Origin: Roridomyces roridus
Taxonomy: Eukaryota > Basidiomycota > Agaricomycetes > Agaricales > Mycenaceae
Direction of reading: 5' to 3'
DNA length: 64,000 nt
Assembly: GCA_029378245.1 (NCBI GenBank)
Contig: JARKIF010000011.1
Coordinates: 248,001-312,000, forward strand
Shown: positions 21,084-58,497 of the stretch, piece by piece
Layout: every line of letters starts with the position of its first letter
Position numbering within the stretch: the stretch's first letter is position 1
Notes under the pieces: model-generated
What the model saw: only the letters and a program-made list of their open reading frames with translations
Databases searched by the model: none
What the model was told of the DNA's origin: nothing
Made by a program: the position numbers and the translations under genes

Positions 21084-23098
21084 ATGATCACCCATCTTCC
21101 GGACCACCTTCCCCCTCTGCCAGAAACGGAGCAAGGCTGGAATGCCAATATCACCACTGGGTATCAAGTCCTAGAAAACGCGTACACCCACGCGTTGCAT
21201 GCCTTGCGGAGGGAGGACAGCGACACACTGCGTTACCGAATTATATCCTCCAACATTCTCGACAATCTGCTTCCTGTCCTGGAGCAAATGGAAATCGACG
21301 TGCCAGGGGATTGGGCTTTCAGCTGCGCCAATCTCTTGGGACCTCTGGTGTACGAGCTCCAAATGTCTGCATTATCGGCCAAGGGGGTGTGCGTCTCATA
21401 ATTTCCCTTTCCCTACTTGATGCTAATCCCATTCAAGAGAACGGGACAATGTAGTTTTACTGCAGCCTGTTACTGTGGAAAGCTCATCCAATAGAGGCCG
21501 CCCTCGCAAGGAGGTTAATCCAGACTACCTCAAGGAAGCCGTCGCTCCCAATCGGAATATCAAGCTTGGCAAACTTGCTTCTGCTCTTAAAATCCACCGC
21601 CACACTTTGCGCAAACGTCTCAGAGAGCTGGGAATATCTCAGCGTTTCCAAGACATTGATGACGATGCTCTTAACCTCATCACCCGTCAATACAAGGCCA
21701 AGAAACCCACCTCCGGTCTACGATACCTTCAGGGATACTATCGGCGTCATGGGCTTCGGGTTCAGAGGGAAAGGGCCAGATTGTCGCTCAAGAGGGTTGA
21801 CAGCCTTGGGCAGATTCTGCGGCGCCGCCTGGCTTTACGTCGCCGAAGATACAAGGTGCCCAGACCCAACTACCTTTGGCACTGCGACGGGCACCACAAG
21901 CTCATTTGGTGGGGTATTGTCATCCATGGGTTTGTGGACGGCGAGTAACACCCAGTTGTTATTGTGTTCTTCCTTACAATGCATCTCAGGTTACCGGCCT
22001 CAAGGCCAGTACCAACAGCCGTTCAGCAACTGTTCTCGAGGTCTTCCTTGACGCCATTCAGCAATATGGCACTCCCTCCCGAATGCGCGGTGACCGGGGC
22101 GGTGAAAATACCAAAGTCGCCATTTGGATGGTAATGCATAGGGGACCTGGCCGTGCATCTTTCATGTGGGGCTCGTGCGTCATCTCTTTCCCATTCCATT
22201 GCAAGTCCGACATCTTTCGCAGCTCTACAAGAAATACAAGAATTGAGCGGCTCTGGGTGGAAGTCGGTACACAGTTTGCAAGACGCTGGCGTGGTTTTTT
22301 CACCAGACTCGGGCGCCTACATCGGCTTGACCGCAAGAACCCAGTCCACCTCTGGTTACTCCATCGGCTGTTCCTTCCAGAAATAAATGAAGACTGTACG
22401 GAGTTCCAGGAGGAATGGAATCTGCACCCTATTCGCGGACCTGGCCTGACCTCTGACCAGAGCCCTGCCGTGAGCCATGCCTTATTTCCGGGTTCTCTTT
22501 TATTGATGGTCCGTCCCAGGACATACGTTTCCTTGGCCAGTTGACAGAGGGAGTGTACCGTGAGGATCCACTGGACGGAATACATCCAGACGCCATCAAC
22601 AGGTACTACGGCGTGGAAGGGCGGCGTCTTCGGCGCAGTAGAGACCAAACCGGTGCTGGTGTCTCCGCGGATGAAGGCCAGGAGGATAGCGACCGGGAAG
22701 AAGTGGAGGAGGTGGAGGAGCTAGAGAATCGCATTGCGGCCGACCTGAATAGCAACATTCGCCATGCTCCTGTCAAGGTTGCTCACCACTTCTCTCCCTT
22801 CAAGAACGCCCATGTGGGGCAGCAGTTTCTGCTTCTAATGGAATCTGTCCTGGAAGAGGTTGAGCACGCGCCTGGAGGATATGGAGTTCTTTCTGAGGAG
22901 TGGGAGGAAGAGGAATACCCCGAAATAGAGGTGTTCTGCCCTGGGACAAGAGGGAAGGAGGTAACTGCTATCCTCCCTCGGGGCATCTGGTATCCACGAG
23001 CAGTAGCTTGGGCGAGATCTTTAGATCTTCTGTTGCGCGTTCAGCATGAGTTGGGTGAAGAATCGGATGAGGGGGAAGCAGATTCAGATTCAGACTAG
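21084..23098 (+). CDS. DDE integrase (rve-like), basidiomycete transposon family
   Basis: Helical N-terminus (MITHLPDHLPPLPETEQGW), intron, helix-turn-helix-like NIKLGKLASALKIHRHTLRK, then the catalytic core: YLWHCDGHHKLIWWGIVIHG (first Asp), RMRGDRGGENTKVAI (second Asp), an intron at 22174-22222, TRNTRIERLWVEVGTQF (Glu), HLWLLHRLFLPEINEDCTEF, an intron (22470-22520), DIRFLGQLTEGVY, DAINRYYG and an acidic tail ending ...ADSDSD. All three acidic residues of the DDE triad are present. The joint between HGFVDG and VTGLKASTN (about 21945-21995) could not be spliced in frame with visible sites, so the copy may carry one lesion. Whether the BTB gene travels with it is not known. Confidence 0.75.
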
Positions 23099-51187: not shown

Positions 51188-51305
51188 TACGGTAAGCGAG
51201 ACGGTTGAGGTTCGTTTCCAGGTTGAGAGATGTCAGATGTCAAACCTGTCGGATAGATAACCGTGATAATCATCAATCTATCAGCAGCCGGGATGTTATC
51301 ATTGA
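51188..51305 (+). repeat. left terminal inverted repeat, 118 bp
   Basis: Inverted copy of 56290-56407 with three substitutions (T/C at 51223, A/G at 51286 and T/C at 51302). Starts TACGGTAAGCGAGACGGT. Confidence 0.92.
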
Positions 51306-51366
51306 GGCTACTCGGCCAACTCAACGGAAGTGATGTGGTATGAGTGCATCGAACATGGTATTCTAG

Positions 51367-52961
51367 CTACGCCACAGTCATTGCAACAGTCATATTAACA
51401 AACACATCCCAACCTGTTTCCATAGTAAGAGTGGGTTCTCCAATCTCTTCATAAACCCGGCATGCATACACATCAAACTCTGCCGTGAGGCCTGGCCAGC
51501 TTTGAAACTGTGATTTAGGACCTTCCTCACCACTGATCTGATCCCGCAGTGCATCAATTGCAACCTGGGGGACTTTGATTCGACAGTCAAGCGCCCCAAA
51601 CAGTTCAGGATACTCCATAGCGTGCGATGGGACATGCCCCGACGGCATTATCTTGTCGTGCTGGTGTCGAACGCGATGATTGTTCCACCAGTCGGCAAAA
51701 TCATCCAGTTCCCGCTGGATGAGAGGAGAAAAGATCCAATAGAAAAGAGGCCTACATTACCCAATGTAAGTCAAATCACAGGGCAGGCTGAGTTGATTAA
51801 ACTTACTCGTGTAATGGATCATGAGGGTTGAACAGATGCTCCGCCCGGCCTCTCAACAGATAATCCTTCAAATTCAAACCCAACTTCTCCTTCAAGTGCC
51901 GCCAAAATCCTTCAATTACAGTGTTATGAACACTCTTGATCAGGACATGGAATGGATATAGTGCTGGATCGATGTCGGGGGCATACATCTCTCTGACAAA
52001 AGAGGGTCAGCGGATGTGCCGCAAATTATGGACCACATACCTCAGTGCCGCCATAAATGCATAGATCCATCCAACCTCAGAACCCTTATCCGTCGTCAGT
52101 TGGATGGGAATGACTGCGATAAAAGGAATGCTTTGTGAGTGAACGGTCAGACACATCTGAGTTAAAGTACTCACATCCGGTGTGCTCAACAAAGTCAAGG
52201 AAAATGTGCCCCCCAGCCCCGGCGCTACGTATGTCTGGTAAAACTTTGATGAAAACCAGTGCATCGGTGAATTTGTCTTTGAATGCGTAGATGGAAAAGC
52301 CCACTCCACCCATGCGGAGAGCAGCAGGTGCGAGTTTCTCATGTCCATCACTACTAATTTCATAGTACGGACCACTCGCACGCAGAGGAACACGAATTAC
52401 GCGACGGTTCTTGCGGCCAGGGAAGCGAACTTCGAAGCCACCGGGGTAGTGTTCAACCATGATTTGGCGGATAAGATCACTTGCGGATTTTTCAGCTGAA
52501 TTGCTGTGGAGAAAATAGTAACACACCGGGGAGCAAATAGCATTTTGAGACGAAGTTGGTCTTTGATGAATGCCGGTCCACGCAGCTGAGCGGGATCCCT
52601 CTCCACCACATCAACAACGGCTTGTCTGACCTGGTCCACGGACAGCTTCTGCGTGCGCACACTGGCTTTGATGCCGAGCCGTTCTTTGAATTTGCGGAGA
52701 GAGCTTAGTCTGAGAAAAAAATCATCAGACAGCCAAAGCGGTAGCGAACATCGAACACACCTAATATGATACTTGAAATTGGACGCCAAAGCCGAAATCT
52801 GGTGCTCGCGACTTAATCCCTGCCGTGCATATTTGAGGAGGGCCTCCCGAAGCTTCTCATCGTCGGGAGCTAAGGAATTATCAGGATTCAACTGGGAGAT
52901 GTGTCATTGCAAACTCACGGTCTTGAGATGGATGCCCATTTTTGCCAGTAGGATTTGGCAT
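51367..52961 (-). CDS. DDE integrase (rve-like) of the kinase-bearing transposon
   Basis: Begins MPNPTGKNGHPSQD at the ATG 52959-52961. An intron leads to DDEKLREALLKYARQGLSRE, HQISALASNFKYHI, a helix-turn-helix-like N-terminal region, then LRKFKERLGIKASVRTQKLS, DLIRQIMVEHYPGGFEVRFP. The core has YYEISSDGHEKLAP (first Asp), FSIYAFKDKFTDALVFIKVL, IPIQLTTDKGSEVGWIYAFM (second Asp), KSVHNTVIEGFWRHLKEKLG (Glu), and the C-terminal ELDDFADWWNNHRVRHQHDK typical of basidiomycete 'integrase core domain' proteins. All three catalytic acids are present and the visible exons join without stop codons, so the enzyme may be active. It should cut and join the terminal repeats. Confidence 0.88.
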
Positions 52962-53571
52962 CGTGTTTGGTGGGTGCGTTATGAAAGGGATATTTTTCTC
53001 GCTGAGCTTTTAAGTCACAATATTCCGACGCACCTGGAAACATCATGGAGGTGCCGAGCGGACGATTGTATCGTCTAATGCACATCCCAACATGCCGGGG
53101 CCGTTGGTGGCTGACTGAGCATACAGGTGAGTAATCCTTTCAATTGTTGTTGAACTTGTGTTGAACAGCGGTTAGTCGATTGGGAAGTAATCATGCTAAT
53201 CATTCTATTAGTTGTTCCCTGTTCAAGCCCGTTCCAGTCCGTTGTTCAAGCCAAGCCAATTCTTGCAAAGCAATCCGGTCAAGTCCGTCCACCCGAATCA
53301 GTCCGTTCCAGTCCGTTGAATTCCAGTCGGCGGCTCATTCCCGTTCCACTCCGTAATTCACAGTTGGTCCAAGGTCCGTTCAAGTCCGTCTTTTTTTTCT
53401 TTTGCTTTGCACAACCCCGTCGACACTTACTCCGTTCAGCTGAAAGCGCATCACTGGCGCCGCCTAGGATGCTCAAGCTGCTCAAACTTAACCGACCATT
53501 CACGAGATTTAAAAGCACGAAGGTCCCTTCCCAGTCTTTCACTGAACTTCCCCCAAATAACTAACTCTGGA
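52962..53571. promoter_or_regulatory. central divergent promoter region of the transposon
   Basis: The 610 bp between the two start codons. The kinase side (53190-53380) is full of imperfect GTTCCAGTCCGT / TTCAAGTCCGT words, which could be binding sites or simple drift. Confidence 0.5.
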
Positions 53572-56065
53572 ATGACCGAGACCGCACCCTCCGAATGTTC
53601 CGACTGTGGGACCACTTTCCGTCTCCGCACCGATGACAGTATCTGTCAAAAGTGCGAGAAGTTGTCTCAGTTTAAACGCGACACTGCAGACTACCAGCAG
53701 CTTGAGGTAAGTGATCTGTGGACCCAACAATACCCATTCTGACTACTGTGTGGCAGGAACAACCGCAGTGCGCCTTTTGCGGCCTCACACGCCGCAACAA
53801 CATGCCGTTGATTGGCACCATCCAGACCTGTGGTGCTTCCCGCTGTGTCGACGAGGCTCGGAAGGAGAATGGTAGTGCCACTTCCGGCACCCAGGGTATG
53901 TTTTTCTTCTGTTCCTTTCTTCATTCCTACCTTTGATGACTGGGGCTAAGGCGGATCGACATCCAACAACAACAACACAAACAGTGTGCCGGAGACTTAT
54001 GAGGCCCGCGCTGCTGCCATGAAACAGCGCTTGCGTACTTCTGTGGGCACCACCAGAGCCGGCACTTCGTTGCACACGGCCGCTCTGATCTTCCACGAGG
54101 GAGGGACTGGTGGCCAGGCGGAGGATATGATTCGGCTTGCAGTAATGGTATGTTCTTCTCCTCCTCACAGTAACTGCCTGTTTGTTCAACTGAACATGTT
54201 GTAGACTCGCATGAGCGACTCAAAGGCAACCAATACCAAGATTGGCAACCTCATCAAGCTGTACCGGTCGTCCATCCCCATGCCAGGTATGTATTTCTCT
54301 TGCCAAAAAAAGTTTTCAACTCATCTAATGGTATTTGATAGACCTCGTTCAAGAAATTGTTGATGTTGTGTCGCCGCAATTTGTCAAGTACAAGCTTGGG
54401 ATGCTCCCACTTGAGATGTAAGTCCACTGCTCTCGTCTTGCGTACATACCTTTGATCTCATTCCATCTCATGTAGTGGCGACGTTGATCTACGCTGGTCC
54501 GGCAATCGCCTTCCCGAACCCAACTCAATGACCGGCAGTTTGGCCAATTTCTATATGATGCATTCCTCAACAACTGAGAAAATTGCGACGTACGTTAACA
54601 ATATTCCCAGTATCTTCCGCACCCTTGCCCGGGGCCATAATACGAAGCTACTCTGCCTCGAGTTGGTGGTGAACATGGACTCGGTGCGTGAATGCCTGTC
54701 TTATATTGACTCAGGTTTTAACTTTTCTTAGTACGGAGATCGTGAAGAGCTCGATGCGGTGGCACGCAACCTCAATGTAGACGAACCAAATTCTACCAGT
54801 CGAAAGCGCGCCATCTCGGGTACCAGTTCTGGGGGCCTCAGTAAGCGTCTTCGTGCACTGACCAATTCAAGTATGTCTATTGCGTGAAATTTCTACGGGC
54901 TTTGTCTCATCTTGTTTCTACTTTTTTCTAGACATCGGTTCAACCCTTGGGTCGCGCTTTGGTGCCGCCGGCTCCAGCCGCACTCCCGCACTTATGACAC
55001 CCAAGACTCAGTCGCGTGTAACACTTGAGAGATGTGACATCTCCGTCCATCCACCCCAGTACGAGCCAGAACTCATCCAGAAGTCTGGGCAAATTGAAGC
55101 AGTCATCGACGACGTGCATTTTGCCAAGGGCGGTTCCAAACTTGCATATGATGTGCGTGGTTAATTTGCATGGGCTGAACTGCAACTCATTTCTCCACCC
55201 AGATGACCTCTTTGTCAACGACAAGGAGGAACGCGCTGTTGCCAAGCGTATCTACCGTACATCCGATGACGATTCTCACTCGCTCTCTAACGGCGTGTCT
55301 GTGGTGCATAATCGTGCGCTACTTGAATCCGAGTGCCACCGTCTTGCTCTGGGCAGGGAACTCTTTGGAGATTTTGTGGCATATTGCAAGGAGATGGATG
55401 TTGCAATTTTTAACTGTGCGTCACCGTGACCCTTTCTCAAAGACTGCCCTAAACTATAGTCTAGTCATCGAGTTTTCCTCAGCCTACCTTGCCCAAGAGA
55501 TGCTGGTTCAAGTGACCCGCTCACCCAGCGTGGCCTCTGGCCTTGATAGCTTCGAGGATGAGGGAATGACGTGGATGGTTGAGCCCAAGCGTGCGGCGGC
55601 TGTCATTCAATTCACCTCCACACTCGACCACAAGGCTCGTGGCTCCGACCTCACGCACCTCACCATTCACAGCTTTGCACATTATGTGTTCGGTTCCGCC
55701 ACCGGAACACTTGTTATGGCTGATATTCAAGGAACCCCCGCTACGGTCCGTGGTCATGATGGTTTGGTTTTGTTTGATGTCATGACCCACACTCAAGACG
55801 GGTGAGTGTCTGTCCCTAGTCTCATTGCTCTAAATTAATGTTTTTATACAGGGGTTCCGGCCTTGGAGACTTTGGTTTCGAGGGTATTGAGTCTTTCATC
55901 AACACTCACCAGTGCAACCAGTTGTGCAAACGGCTCGAGTTTGACGACATCTTCCCCTTGGAGCTCCCGGCAGATATTCCGGGCCCAGATGCAACTGAGG
56001 CTTCTGGATCAGAGGGCGCGGGTCATGGTGAAGACGGCGATGACCAGGATGTCGGCGATGACTAG
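53572..56065 (+). CDS. alpha-kinase (MHCK/EF2K type) with N-terminal zinc ribbons
   Basis: About ten exons, roughly 640 residues. The N-terminus has Cys pairs in CSDCGTTFRLRTDDSICQKC and CAFCGLTRRNNMP...CGASRC. The middle is helical, with IFRTLARGHNTKLLCLELVV. A linker with SRKRAISGTSSGGLSKRLRA precedes the kinase domain: VIDDVHFAKGGSKLAYD, ALGRELFGDFVAYCKEMDV, SSAYLAQEMLVQVTRSPSV, FTSTLDHKARGSDLTHLTIH, LVMADIQGTPATV (catalytic Asp), LFDVMTHTQDGGSGLGDFGF (Gly-rich loop) and FINTHQCNQLCKRLEF, whose His-x-Cys-x3-Cys with an upstream His forms the structural zinc site. Members phosphorylate Ser/Thr in proteins such as myosin II or eEF2. The tail is acidic. It appears intact. Its place within a transposon is the surprise. 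Confidence 0.9.
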
Positions 56066-56289
56066 CTGTACTGAGTAGCGTGTCCGAACAATTGAGCTCT
56101 ACCTTTTTGATCTGCTTGTGATTTCATCACTGATTCCAAACTGAGCATTCTGGTATTGCTCAGGCTTACTGTTCTAATGTAGAGCACTTCAATCAGTGGA
56201 ACAGTCTTCATTTTACATGATTTGCGCAACAGACATCACATGCAACACACGCTCGGCAAATCATCTTGCCGAGTACGGAACAGAGATCA

Positions 56290-56407
56290 TCAGTGATAAC
56301 ATCCCGGCCGCTGATAGATTGATGATTATCACGGTTATCTATCCGACAGGTTTGACATCTGACATCTCTCAGCCTGGAAACGAACCTCAACCGTCTCGCT
56401 TACCGTA
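56290..56407 (-). repeat. right terminal inverted repeat, 118 bp
   Basis: Inverted partner of 51188-51305, 115 of 118 positions the same; followed by the target copy GTAGAT. Confidence 0.92.
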
Positions 56408-58497
56408 GTAGATGGCCGAAGTGCGGGTTATCGTATCCCGGTCACTGCAGGTTCAGATTCCCAGTCAATACTTACATTTGAATGACGAGAAGAGTTTCGA
56501 CTAACCGCAAAAGGGAGAGAAGCTTCTCACAGAGGGGGACATCCAGAATCTCCCGCAGCGCGAAGTCATACAGTGCGAGATTTTCGACCAGCATGCAGGT
56601 ATATTGGCGGACTTCAGCGATATTTGATGCGAAAAGGACCGATATGCGTGTTTGTAAGTGACCAGAGGCGACAAGAGTCTCTGCGCCGGCTGGCCAACGG
56701 GAAAGTTGGGCCAGTGTTTCTGCTGTTGTCCGTACAACCCTCTCGTCAATGTCCCTAATCGTAATTGCATTACTTGCAGCTTTCCACAAGGGAGACGCAG
56801 AAAACCGACCTCGTGGCATCCCATAACACTCCAATCGGGAGTGCCTCCAGAACAGAGTTGATAACATGCTCGTACTCCCCGCACGCCTCGCGTCTGTATG
56901 CCCGACGTGTGGACTTGTGTGTGACCAAATTCCAGATCAAACAGGATGCCCCATATCGGATATCCGCGCGCTCCGAGCAAAGCAAGCGAGGAAGGGTTTC
57001 GAGAACATTTGCTGCCACCAGAGTCGCTGCGCCGTCCGAATGCAGGTCTTCTGCCATCTTATTCAAGGCATACGCCGCTCTCTTGACGACGTCTTCCTTG
57101 TCTTCCCTGGTTGGCCATGTCATCAGTGCAAGTCTTTGGAGACTCGAAACGGACACGACTTACTTCAAAAACCCACACAACGCCGGAATGATCTCCGGTG
57201 CACAGGTATGGTACTGAGCCAGGTTGGCTACCAGGGAGCACATACAATATCGCAGGGACGAACATCTGGAGATCAAATCTGGGATATTTCGCAATATGTT
57301 TGCCTCGAGGATGATAACTGGGCCGGTGGGATGCTGGGAAAGTCGAAGTAACTCCATGATAGTGACATCCATTAAGGCTGGGCCCATGTTCCTAGAAAGG
57401 AAGAGTTTCAACATGGTTACCGAAGACGATATGTGGACTTCCTGTAGGTCACTTAGCCAATCCTCGATAGGTATTGCTCTCAGAAGAGCTGAAGCAGAAG
57501 AGGAATGATGTTTTTGTGCTAGAGTGTTGCATAGTTGAAGGACAGTATTTTGGTCCGCAGCTACCGCGACGATTGACGCTGCGAATTCCGGGCGCTGAAT
57601 CGCTTGAGCCAGTGCATCCGTGGCCTGGGCAATGACGTTCTCATCTTCATCCCTAGATAAAAGACAATAAATCATGTTGGCTTGCGAAAGACAGGGCGGT
57701 TATGCTCGCCGTAGTAGGTCCAACAACTTGAGCAGGGGGATTTTTTGCAAAGCTAGCTCCGCATTGTATTCTTTGTGTTGTATAAGGTCACCGATGAACT
57801 GGCATGTCTGCGATCTGATGGATGGGTTGCTGGACTGAAGCAACGTCCCTAAAATGTTCGGTCCGTCGCCGCTGGACATTGCGGATGTCACTTCAAGAAT
57901 GAAGTCATCGGTGGGGTCGATGTACCTGAAAAGGTGAGAATGCACAACAGTACCTGAGATCACTAGAGACATACCCTAGCGCGCCACTGAGTCTTGTGAA
58001 CCTCCTTGGCCTGAGCAATATCCCGCATGTATGTGAAAGTAGACTCAGAATCAGCGGAGGTGTCAACGCCCAGAGTTTCTCTTCTGCCAGGAATTGAGGA
58101 ACTCGGCTGAGGAAGGAAGAATGCAGTATCGCTTGTGCGTCGTCAGGGTCCCAACGAGCTCGGTCAGCCAGATGTTCCAGGACAGCGGTTTGCGTTCGAA
58201 GAGATACATATTTGCATCCAAGCCCATCCTATTCAATGGGATGACAGTTCAGATAAGCGTCCCACTCACAGCAGGTAGGACGAGAGATCTTCCAGCCCAG
58301 GTTGGGAAAGTTCTAGTGCGCGATTCGACTCGATGAGCCCAACAGCTTGTCGGTGGTACATGAATCTCATCAAGGGCTTTGAGGCCGAATGGAGGTTGAT
58401 CGTCGGGCCCGAGTTGAGCAAGGAATTGCTGTCGGACCACCAGCTATGGATGCTGGGACGAGAATCCTGGCGTTGGAGAGGTGCCATGGGATGGAGT
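56408..58497 (-). pseudogene. ARM-repeat protein gene, 5' part, interrupted by the transposon
   Basis: Starts at the ATG 58495-58497: MAPLQRQDSRPSIHSWWSDS, GPTINLHSASKPLMRFMYHR, QAVGLIESNRALELSQPGLE, the N-terminus of a large ARM/HEAT family of mushrooms. Following exons hold repeated helices (VTSAMSSGDGPNILGTLLQS, IRSQTCQFIGDLIQHKEYNA, LCNTLAQKHHSSSASALLRA, YCMCSLVANLAQYHTCAPEI, KRAAYALNKMAEDL, VVRTTAETLAQLSRWPAGAE, EVRQYTCMLVENLALYDFAL). The last exon reads DRDTITRTSAIY and then meets the transposon at 56407. Six codons of element sequence follow before a stop at 56387-56389, so a shortened protein lacking 56 residues might still be made. Function: protein binding, otherwise unknown. Confidence 0.85.

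What the first reader, a model, noticed from the sequence alone, without database searches (positions are those of the whole stretch)
51188..56407. A cut-and-paste transposon whose only cargo is an alpha-kinase
Seen: 118 bp inverted ends with three mismatches, perfect 6 bp target duplication GTAGAT, and two divergent genes only, a DDE integrase and an apparently intact alpha-kinase with zinc ribbons. Known: alpha-kinases and rve-like integrases are both numerous in mushroom genomes, but I know of no description of one element carrying both. Inference: the kinase is spread by, or serves, the element (for example by modifying host factors or the integrase). This would explain lineage-specific bursts of alpha-kinases in Agaricomycetes.
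Basis: partly seen in the sequence, partly recalled or inferred. Interest (0 to 1): 0.92.

Follow-up and report, generated by a model that had tools for sequence, protein, structure and literature searches.

The report
Jumping gene carrying a protein kinase
A small mushroom carries several nearly identical copies of a cut-and-paste jumping gene that encodes only its transposase and an alpha-type protein kinase; the pairing is already known from rust fungi, but here nearly every alpha-kinase found in the genome turns out to sit next to such a transposase.

Summary
At 51188-56407 lies a 5,220-bp element with 118-bp inverted ends (3 mismatches) and a GTAGAT duplication. The genome (probably Roridomyces roridus) has five copies 99.8% alike: three with their own 6-bp duplications, two flanking a 6.6-kb host segment. 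One correction: the window's kinase is frame-shifted by 1 bp; the other four copies read open.

The pairing is not new. Ends, 6-bp duplication and divergent transposase/alpha-kinase genes match the IS3EU superfamily. Kojima 2025 states that all TET-bearing IS3EU families carry a TET/JBP gene between oppositely oriented transposase and alpha-kinase genes. This is a TET-less mushroom member.

Beyond the paper: 20 of 21 alpha-kinase matches in the genome lie within 0.6-7.2 kb of a related transposase, 19 divergently, covering all 8 kinase sequence clusters. None of 40 loci of the broader integrase family has a kinase within 32 kb. Kinase and transposase divergence correlate (Mantel r=0.65, p=0.0005); the one pair where both could be measured shows equal dN/dS (0.17). 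I read the kinase as a core gene of the element, not stray cargo. Its target is unknown; I favour a nuclear function serving the element.

The parts
51188..56407 (.). IS3EU-type DNA transposon, 5,220 bp, two genes
   Evidence: inverted ends and duplication; four further copies at 99.8% identity
51182..51187 (+). target-site duplication GTAGAT, left
56408..56413 (+). target-site duplication GTAGAT, right
51188..51305 (+). left terminal inverted repeat, 118 bp, starts TACGGTAAGCG
56290..56407 (-). right terminal inverted repeat, 118 bp, 3 mismatches to the left
51367..52961 (-). transposase (DDE integrase core), 7 exons, 427 aa in my model; candidate catalytic triad D156, D222, E265 (by subtraction from D164/D230/E273 of database model P0015)
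   Evidence: gene model; PF24764; triad columns invariant in 16 aligned homologues; positions
53572..56065 (+). alpha-kinase gene, 11 exons; frame-shifted in the window copy, 653 aa in the four other copies
   Evidence: PF02816 E=1.4e-24; fold match to alpha-kinases
55208..55208 (+). approximate site of the 1-bp deletion private to the window copy
53596..53655 (+). first N-terminal Cys cluster (CX2C..CX2C), putative zinc ribbon
   Evidence: whole in 5 of 13 aligned homologues; coordinates by hand from the exon list
53769..53846 (+). second N-terminal Cys cluster, putative zinc ribbon
   Evidence: whole in 6 of 13 aligned homologues; coordinates by hand from the exon list
54801..54854 (+). basic stretch RKR..KRLR like a bipartite nuclear localisation signal (motif recalled)
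   Evidence: columns R303 and K304 nearly invariant, R305 invariant in 13 aligned kinases; coordinates by hand
55120..55930 (+). alpha-kinase catalytic domain (approximate limits, by hand); conserved K414, H543, D557, Q559, H602, C604, C608

Best explanation
This is a recently active, autonomous-looking cut-and-paste transposon with the hallmarks of the IS3EU superfamily. Shown by sequence: termini beginning TACGGT, 6-bp target duplications, five near-identical copies at different places, a DDE transposase gene and a divergent alpha-kinase gene. Inferred: the transposase binds the long inverted ends, excises the element and inserts it at a 6-bp staggered cut. The kinase is a long-standing second core gene of this transposon lineage, kept by selection because it serves the element. 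The mechanism I think most likely is a nuclear kinase (Cys clusters, conserved basic NLS-like stretch, conserved catalytic residues) that phosphorylates either a host chromatin or silencing factor or the transposase itself, raising expression or transposition of the element; of these I favour the host silencing/chromatin target slightly (about 0.3 against 0.25), because rust relatives are reported to have a TET/JBP gene between the same two genes. Target and direction of the effect are not shown.
For: Copies: five copies at 99.8% with TSDs GTAGAT, GACCAG, GTCATG, plus a pair sharing outer flanks ATCGCC. Linkage: 20 of 21 PF02816 matches within 0.6-7.2 kb of a P0015-type transposase, 19 divergent; 8 kinase nucleotide clusters, each with a linked transposase in at least one copy; none of 40 loci into which I collapsed the 74 PF24764 matches lies within 32 kb of a kinase match. 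Four further elements, of three kinase clusters, with TACGG ends: C112 6,097 bp TSD GTAAGG, C101 2,770 bp TSD CACGAC, C146 with CGGTGAG on both sides, C223 with an irregular flank. Co-evolution: Mantel r=0.65, p=0.0005 for 12 linked pairs; r=0.51, p=0.010 for 8 pairs of this one genome. dN/dS 0.168 for the kinase and 0.167 for the transposase between C223 and C146. For 5 of 16 kinase clusters other than P0001 with a listed contig, a transposase hit has a contig of exactly the same length. Catalytic and zinc-ligand columns invariant in 13 kinases (roles recalled). In print: IS3EU termini, TSD and gene pair.
Against: The window's own kinase is frame-shifted. 11 of 31 P0015-type integrase clusters have no kinase match within 12 kb; ten of them are single matches of about 130-430 bp, but C480 is over 1 kb. 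A partial kinase match at C468 has no transposase. One family (C201) has both genes on the same strand. For L071 and L072 no inverted ends were found, for L069 only weak ones. In the 12 mirror-tree pairs the nearest relative is the same for both genes in 8, different in 4. IS3EU transposase sequences are not held, so placement rests on termini, TSD, gene pair and core domain; NCBIfam IS3 scored only E=0.21. No rust kinase was recovered in the homologue searches. Of five locus pairs tried, dN/dS was measurable for both genes in one. Nothing here tests the kinase's substrate.
Confidence: 0.8

Rival explanations
1. The kinase is passenger cargo of host origin that benefits the fungus (or nobody) and merely hitchhikes.
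For: Alpha-kinases are reported as expanded in rusts, and one is among rust proteins listed as under diversifying selection in a paper on candidate effectors (passages of PMC4469406 and PMC4150398). The window copy with a broken kinase still sits between a clean TSD. Eleven of 31 transposase clusters show no kinase match within 12 kb.
Against: All 8 kinase clusters found in the genome have a linked transposase (the genome search scores only its best candidates), the two genes diverge in parallel and show equal constraint in the one measurable pair; no free-standing alpha-kinase lineage was found in this genome that could be the source.
Confidence: 0.12
2. Different transposons captured alpha-kinases repeatedly and independently, so the pairing is convergent.
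For: C201 has a different gene orientation; nearest relatives disagree between the genes in 4 of 12 pairs; TET/JBP genes are said to have moved between fungal transposon superfamilies (PMC12730594, passages).
Against: Parallel divergence of the two genes, and partners matching across species: the nearest relative of C101 is the same M. kentingensis pair for both genes, and of this element the same M. amicta pair. The divergent order holds for 7 of 8 clusters.
Confidence: 0.06
3. The kinase acts on its own transposase (phosphorylation regulates assembly or nuclear activity) rather than on host silencing.
For: One-to-one co-evolution within one genome is what a direct partner would show; no TET/JBP match was found in this genome (but its control rang nowhere).
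Against: No physical evidence; co-inheritance alone gives the same tree correlation.
Confidence: 0.25

Closest known systems
IS3EU superfamily, TET+ families of rust fungi (Kojima 2025, PMC12730594)
   Same: 6-bp TSD, inverted ends >30 bp ending TAYGG..CCRTA, transposase and alpha-kinase genes in opposite orientations
   Different: Here there is no TET/JBP gene between the two, the host is a mushroom (Mycenaceae), and 20 of 21 alpha-kinase matches of the genome belong to such loci
IS3EU/GingerRoot in general (Kojima 2023, PMC10045372, passages)
   Same: TA..TA termini, usually 6-bp TSD, DDD/E transposase related to IS3/IS481 types
   Different: The word kinase does not occur in that paper's main text
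PF24764 (rva_4) integrases
   Same: Same Pfam core domain
   Different: The 40 stronger rva_4 loci of this genome have no alpha-kinase match within 32 kb
KDZ and Plavaka transposons with TET/JBP genes
   Same: Fungal DNA transposons that carry an enzyme besides the transposase (PMC12730594, passages)
   Different: Other transposase types, 8-bp (Zisupton, Dileera) or 2-3 bp (Plavaka) TSDs, dioxygenase instead of kinase
Alpha-kinases MHCK A, eEF2K, TRPM7/ChaK, ALPK1
   Same: Catalytic domain by sequence; fold match to eEF2K, ChaK and ALPK1
   Different: N-terminal Cys clusters and a middle region for which no significant match was seen in the PDB searches

Membership tests
IS3EU | TA..TA termini, in rust families TAYGG..CCRTA | tested here: met
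   TACGG..CCGTA in all five copies and in four further elements of three kinase clusters
IS3EU | 6-bp target-site duplication | tested here: met
   GTAGAT, GACCAG, GTCATG, GTAAGG, CACGAC; C146 shows 7 bp CGGTGAG, C223 is irregular
IS3EU | terminal inverted repeats longer than 30 bp | tested here: met
   118 bp
IS3EU | DDD/E transposase core | tested here: met
   PF24764; D, D, E columns invariant in 16 aligned homologues; spacing 65 and 42 residues
IS3EU | transposase groups with IS3EU in a tree | not testable with these tools
   Repbase IS3EU proteins are not held; PDB search with the profile gave nothing, NCBIfam IS3 E=0.21
TET+ IS3EU of rusts | alpha-kinase gene opposite to the transposase | tested here: met
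TET+ IS3EU of rusts | TET/JBP gene between the two | tested here: not met
   only about 610 bp lie between the two start codons; PF12851 gave no match in the genome (control rang nowhere)
Alpha-kinase (PF02816) | whole domain above curated cut-off | tested here: met
   87.6 bits against 21.3, profile positions 1-185 of 185 (L009 copy)
Alpha-kinase (PF02816) | catalytic Lys and Asp and zinc ligands (residue roles recalled) | tested here: met
   K414, D557, Q559, H543, H602, C604, C608 invariant in 13 sequences
Alpha-kinase (PF02816) | kinase activity | not testable with these tools
   needs a bench assay

The most novel reading that the evidence does not exclude
In basidiomycetes the alpha-kinase family is essentially a transposon gene: a nuclear protein kinase is an obligatory accessory factor of a cut-and-paste transposon superfamily, used to license transposition or to switch off host silencing, and the large alpha-kinase expansions of rusts and mushrooms are the footprint of that transposon rather than of host signalling or virulence. 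Paired copies of it can also carry off host genes, here a segment with a DNMT2-like methyltransferase gene.
Probability: 0.4. Interest if true: 0.78.

Novelty: new member of a known kind. Interest (0 to 1): 0.52.

Why it matters
Alpha-kinases are reported as highly expanded in rusts (79 and 39 in two columns of a table of PMC4469406, passage, column heads not seen), and one is among rust proteins under diversifying selection in a paper on candidate effectors (PMC4150398, passage). If, as in this genome, they are the second gene of IS3EU-type transposons, counts of expanded kinases and effector candidates need re-reading as transposon content. It also poses a clean question: why should a cut-and-paste transposon carry its own protein kinase for so long?

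Tried and rejected
Rejected: unique or chance repeat (five copies); a gene interrupted by the insertion (longest open stretch across the empty site 71 aa); a TET/JBP gene in the genome (none found, but its control rang nowhere). The database transposase model P0015 uses a 23-nt intron; comparison with P0016 suggests a 47-nt intron and 427 aa. No allelic empty site for the window copy was seen: its left flank matched only itself. An alignment search meant to reach rust kinases returned 13 proteins, 12 named Mycena or Roridomyces and one unnamed (only the best 7,991 candidates were scored). The structure model is weak (mean pLDDT 58.9); all 15 fold matches with E<=0.001 are alpha-kinases.

Rows dropped: for the mirror tree I used 8 loci of the own genome, from 7 of the 8 kinase clusters (C223 and C146 are one cluster); L069 was dropped because the kinase profile found nothing there. 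M. rebaudengoi was found later and not included, so 4 of 5 same-contig pairs were used. Pairs of rows with fewer than 45 shared columns were left out (65 of 66 remained; 27 of 28 in the own genome).
Full report
What is there. The element runs from 51188 to 56407 (5,220 bp), flanked by GTAGAT on both sides. Its 118-bp ends match with three mismatches. On the minus strand lies a transposase gene of seven exons, 427 aa in my model (52961 down to 51367), with PF24764 at E=1.3e-11 (scored on a 435-aa version with a shorter intron). On the plus strand lies an alpha-kinase gene of eleven exons (53572-56065), PF02816 at E=1.4e-24 over the whole profile when scored on copy L009. The structure model of that protein matches only alpha-kinases (eEF2K, ChaK, ALPK1) at E<=0.001, 15 of 15, though its mean pLDDT is just 58.9.

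Correction. Compared with the four other copies the window copy has seven private changes out of fifteen variable sites inside the element: six substitutions and a 1-bp deletion near 55208, which shifts the kinase frame. The four other copies are open for 653 aa. So the kinase of this particular copy is probably dead, unless a weak alternative splice donor is used, while the family's kinase is not.

Copies. The genome of 90.8 Mb in 501 contigs holds the window copy and four more at 99.8% identity: C442:2498452-2503672, C113:90338-95558, and two on C113 at 735869-741212 and 747790-753133. The first two have their own duplications, GACCAG and GTCATG. A 185-bp foldback element with related ends lies on C122 and C46, flanked by ATCTAC/GTAGAT, apparently one insertion present on two contigs in opposite orientation. 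Database proteins equal to these two gene products, named Roridomyces roridus, lie on contigs of 3,151,343 and 1,162,843 bases, the lengths of C442 and C113; this is how I name the host.

A composite. The last two C113 copies face each other around 6,577 bp (741213-747789). Their outer flanks share ATCGCC, as if the whole 17.3-kb block had jumped. The enclosed DNA includes pieces of a C-5 methyltransferase gene (PF00145, E=2.5e-5 and 9.2e-5) that I read as DNMT2-like (my reading). The same DNA, apart from about 0.5 kb that is only in the C113 block and resembles a dispersed repeat, occurs at C491:556724-562817 (about 97%), and 5.2 kb of it at C455 (identity printed as 100). At C491 both ends of the homology fall on the inner element ends, and no piece of the element beyond chance 12-13-base words was seen in the 1.0-1.2 kb fetched around each edge; at C455 this holds for one edge only, the homology breaking off earlier at the other. 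Both copies also carry an extra piece of about 125 bp of inverted repeat at their inner ends. Composite transposition is the simplest reading; template switching during repair is not excluded.

How general. PF02816 has 21 matches in the genome. Twenty lie within 0.6-7.2 kb of a match to transposase P0015, 19 of the 20 in divergent orientation. One further partial kinase match at C468, seen only with P0001, has none. By nucleotide identity the 21 form 8 clusters; the single unlinked one (C20) is a 96.8% copy of the linked C257, so all 8 clusters have a linked transposase. Conversely, of 31 P0015-type clusters 20 have a kinase match within 12 kb and 11 do not; ten of the 11 are single matches of about 130-430 bp, the eleventh (C480) spans over 1 kb. 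The 74 matches of PF24764, collapsed by hand to 40 loci, have no kinase match closer than 32 kb; these include the 12 weaker P0015 clusters that I set apart as generic. A chance rate of about 0.5% per locus makes 20 of 21 untenable as coincidence. These genome searches score only their best candidates, so counts are lower bounds.

Other elements have the same kind of ends: C112 6,097 bp with perfect 26-bp outer ends and TSD GTAAGG; C101 2,770 bp, shortened, TSD CACGAC; C146 about 6.27 kb with CGGTGAG on both sides; C223 about 5.35 kb with an irregular right flank. C146 and C223 are of one kinase cluster. L071 and L072 gave no ends, L069 only a weak inverted repeat. L074 (C201) was not tested for ends.

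Co-evolution. Using pairs of linked genes, kinase and transposase identities correlate: Spearman 0.65, permutation p=0.0005 over 12 pairs; 0.51, p=0.010 over the 8 pairs of this genome, where host phylogeny cannot be the cause; 0.62, p=0.044 without this element and C101. The nearest relative is the same for both genes in 8 of the 12. Between C223 and C146, dN/dS is 0.168 for the kinase (171 codons) and 0.167 for the transposase (342 codons), with dS 0.76 and 0.72; of five locus pairs tried this is the only one measurable for both genes. Of 16 kinase clusters other than P0001 with a listed contig, 5 share an exact contig length with a transposase hit: M. amicta, M. kentingensis twice, M. alexandri, M. 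rebaudengoi.

What it works like. The termini, duplication and DDE core are those of a cut-and-paste element; the near identity of copies says recent movement. The kinase keeps its presumed catalytic and zinc-binding residues in 13 aligned homologues and has a conserved basic stretch like a bipartite nuclear signal (motif and residue roles recalled). I infer a nuclear kinase acting for the element. Its substrate is not known from any result here.

What is known. Kojima 2025 (PMC12730594; abstract, sections 4.1 and 4.2 whole, other passages) describes IS3EU elements of rusts with 6-bp TSD and TAYGG..CCRTA ends, and says all TET+ IS3EU families hold a TET/JBP gene between transposase and alpha-kinase genes, these two being in opposite orientations. 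Kojima 2023 (PMC10045372, passages) gives TA..TA ends and usually 6-bp TSD for IS3EU. My searches for alpha-kinase with transposon terms (of 333 and 272 partial matches only 20 and 10 were listed) showed me no other paper making the link, in an open-access library only; Repbase is not held. Rust alpha-kinase expansion is noted in PMC4469406 (passage) and one alpha-kinase among proteins under diversifying selection in PMC4150398 (passage); PMC5295586 lists the family in a table of enriched domains (passage). None of the passages I saw in these three connects this with transposons.

Verdict. Real, recently active, and a new mushroom member of a known kind. The genome-wide linkage is the part that should interest specialists.

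Noticed in passing
L011, L015, L012 (C113:735869-753133): Two inverted copies of the element enclose 6.6 kb of host DNA with pieces of a C-5 methyltransferase (DNMT2-like) gene; the same DNA lies without the element at C491 and, in part, at C455. Outer flanks share ATCGCC, suggesting composite transposition of a host gene.
   Followed up: partly
L013 and L014 (C122 and C46): 185-bp foldback element with about 86% similar ends and flanks ATCTAC/GTAGAT, a likely non-autonomous relative; the two contigs seem to show the same insertion.
   Followed up: partly
L012 585-850; L011 inner end: Inner ends of the composite copies carry about 125 extra bp of the left inverted repeat in tandem.
   Followed up: no
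window 52480-52526 (-): The database transposase model P0015 uses a 23-nt intron here; the homologue P0016 supports a 47-nt intron instead.
   Followed up: yes
window 21850-22439: A match to another PF24764 (rva_4) integrase lies elsewhere in the window (C13:269850-270439); the nearest kinase match is the element's own, about 33 kb away.
   Followed up: no
L074 (C201:565500-570500): The only linked kinase/transposase pair with both genes on the same strand; a related transposase at C480 has no kinase match within 12 kb.
   Followed up: no
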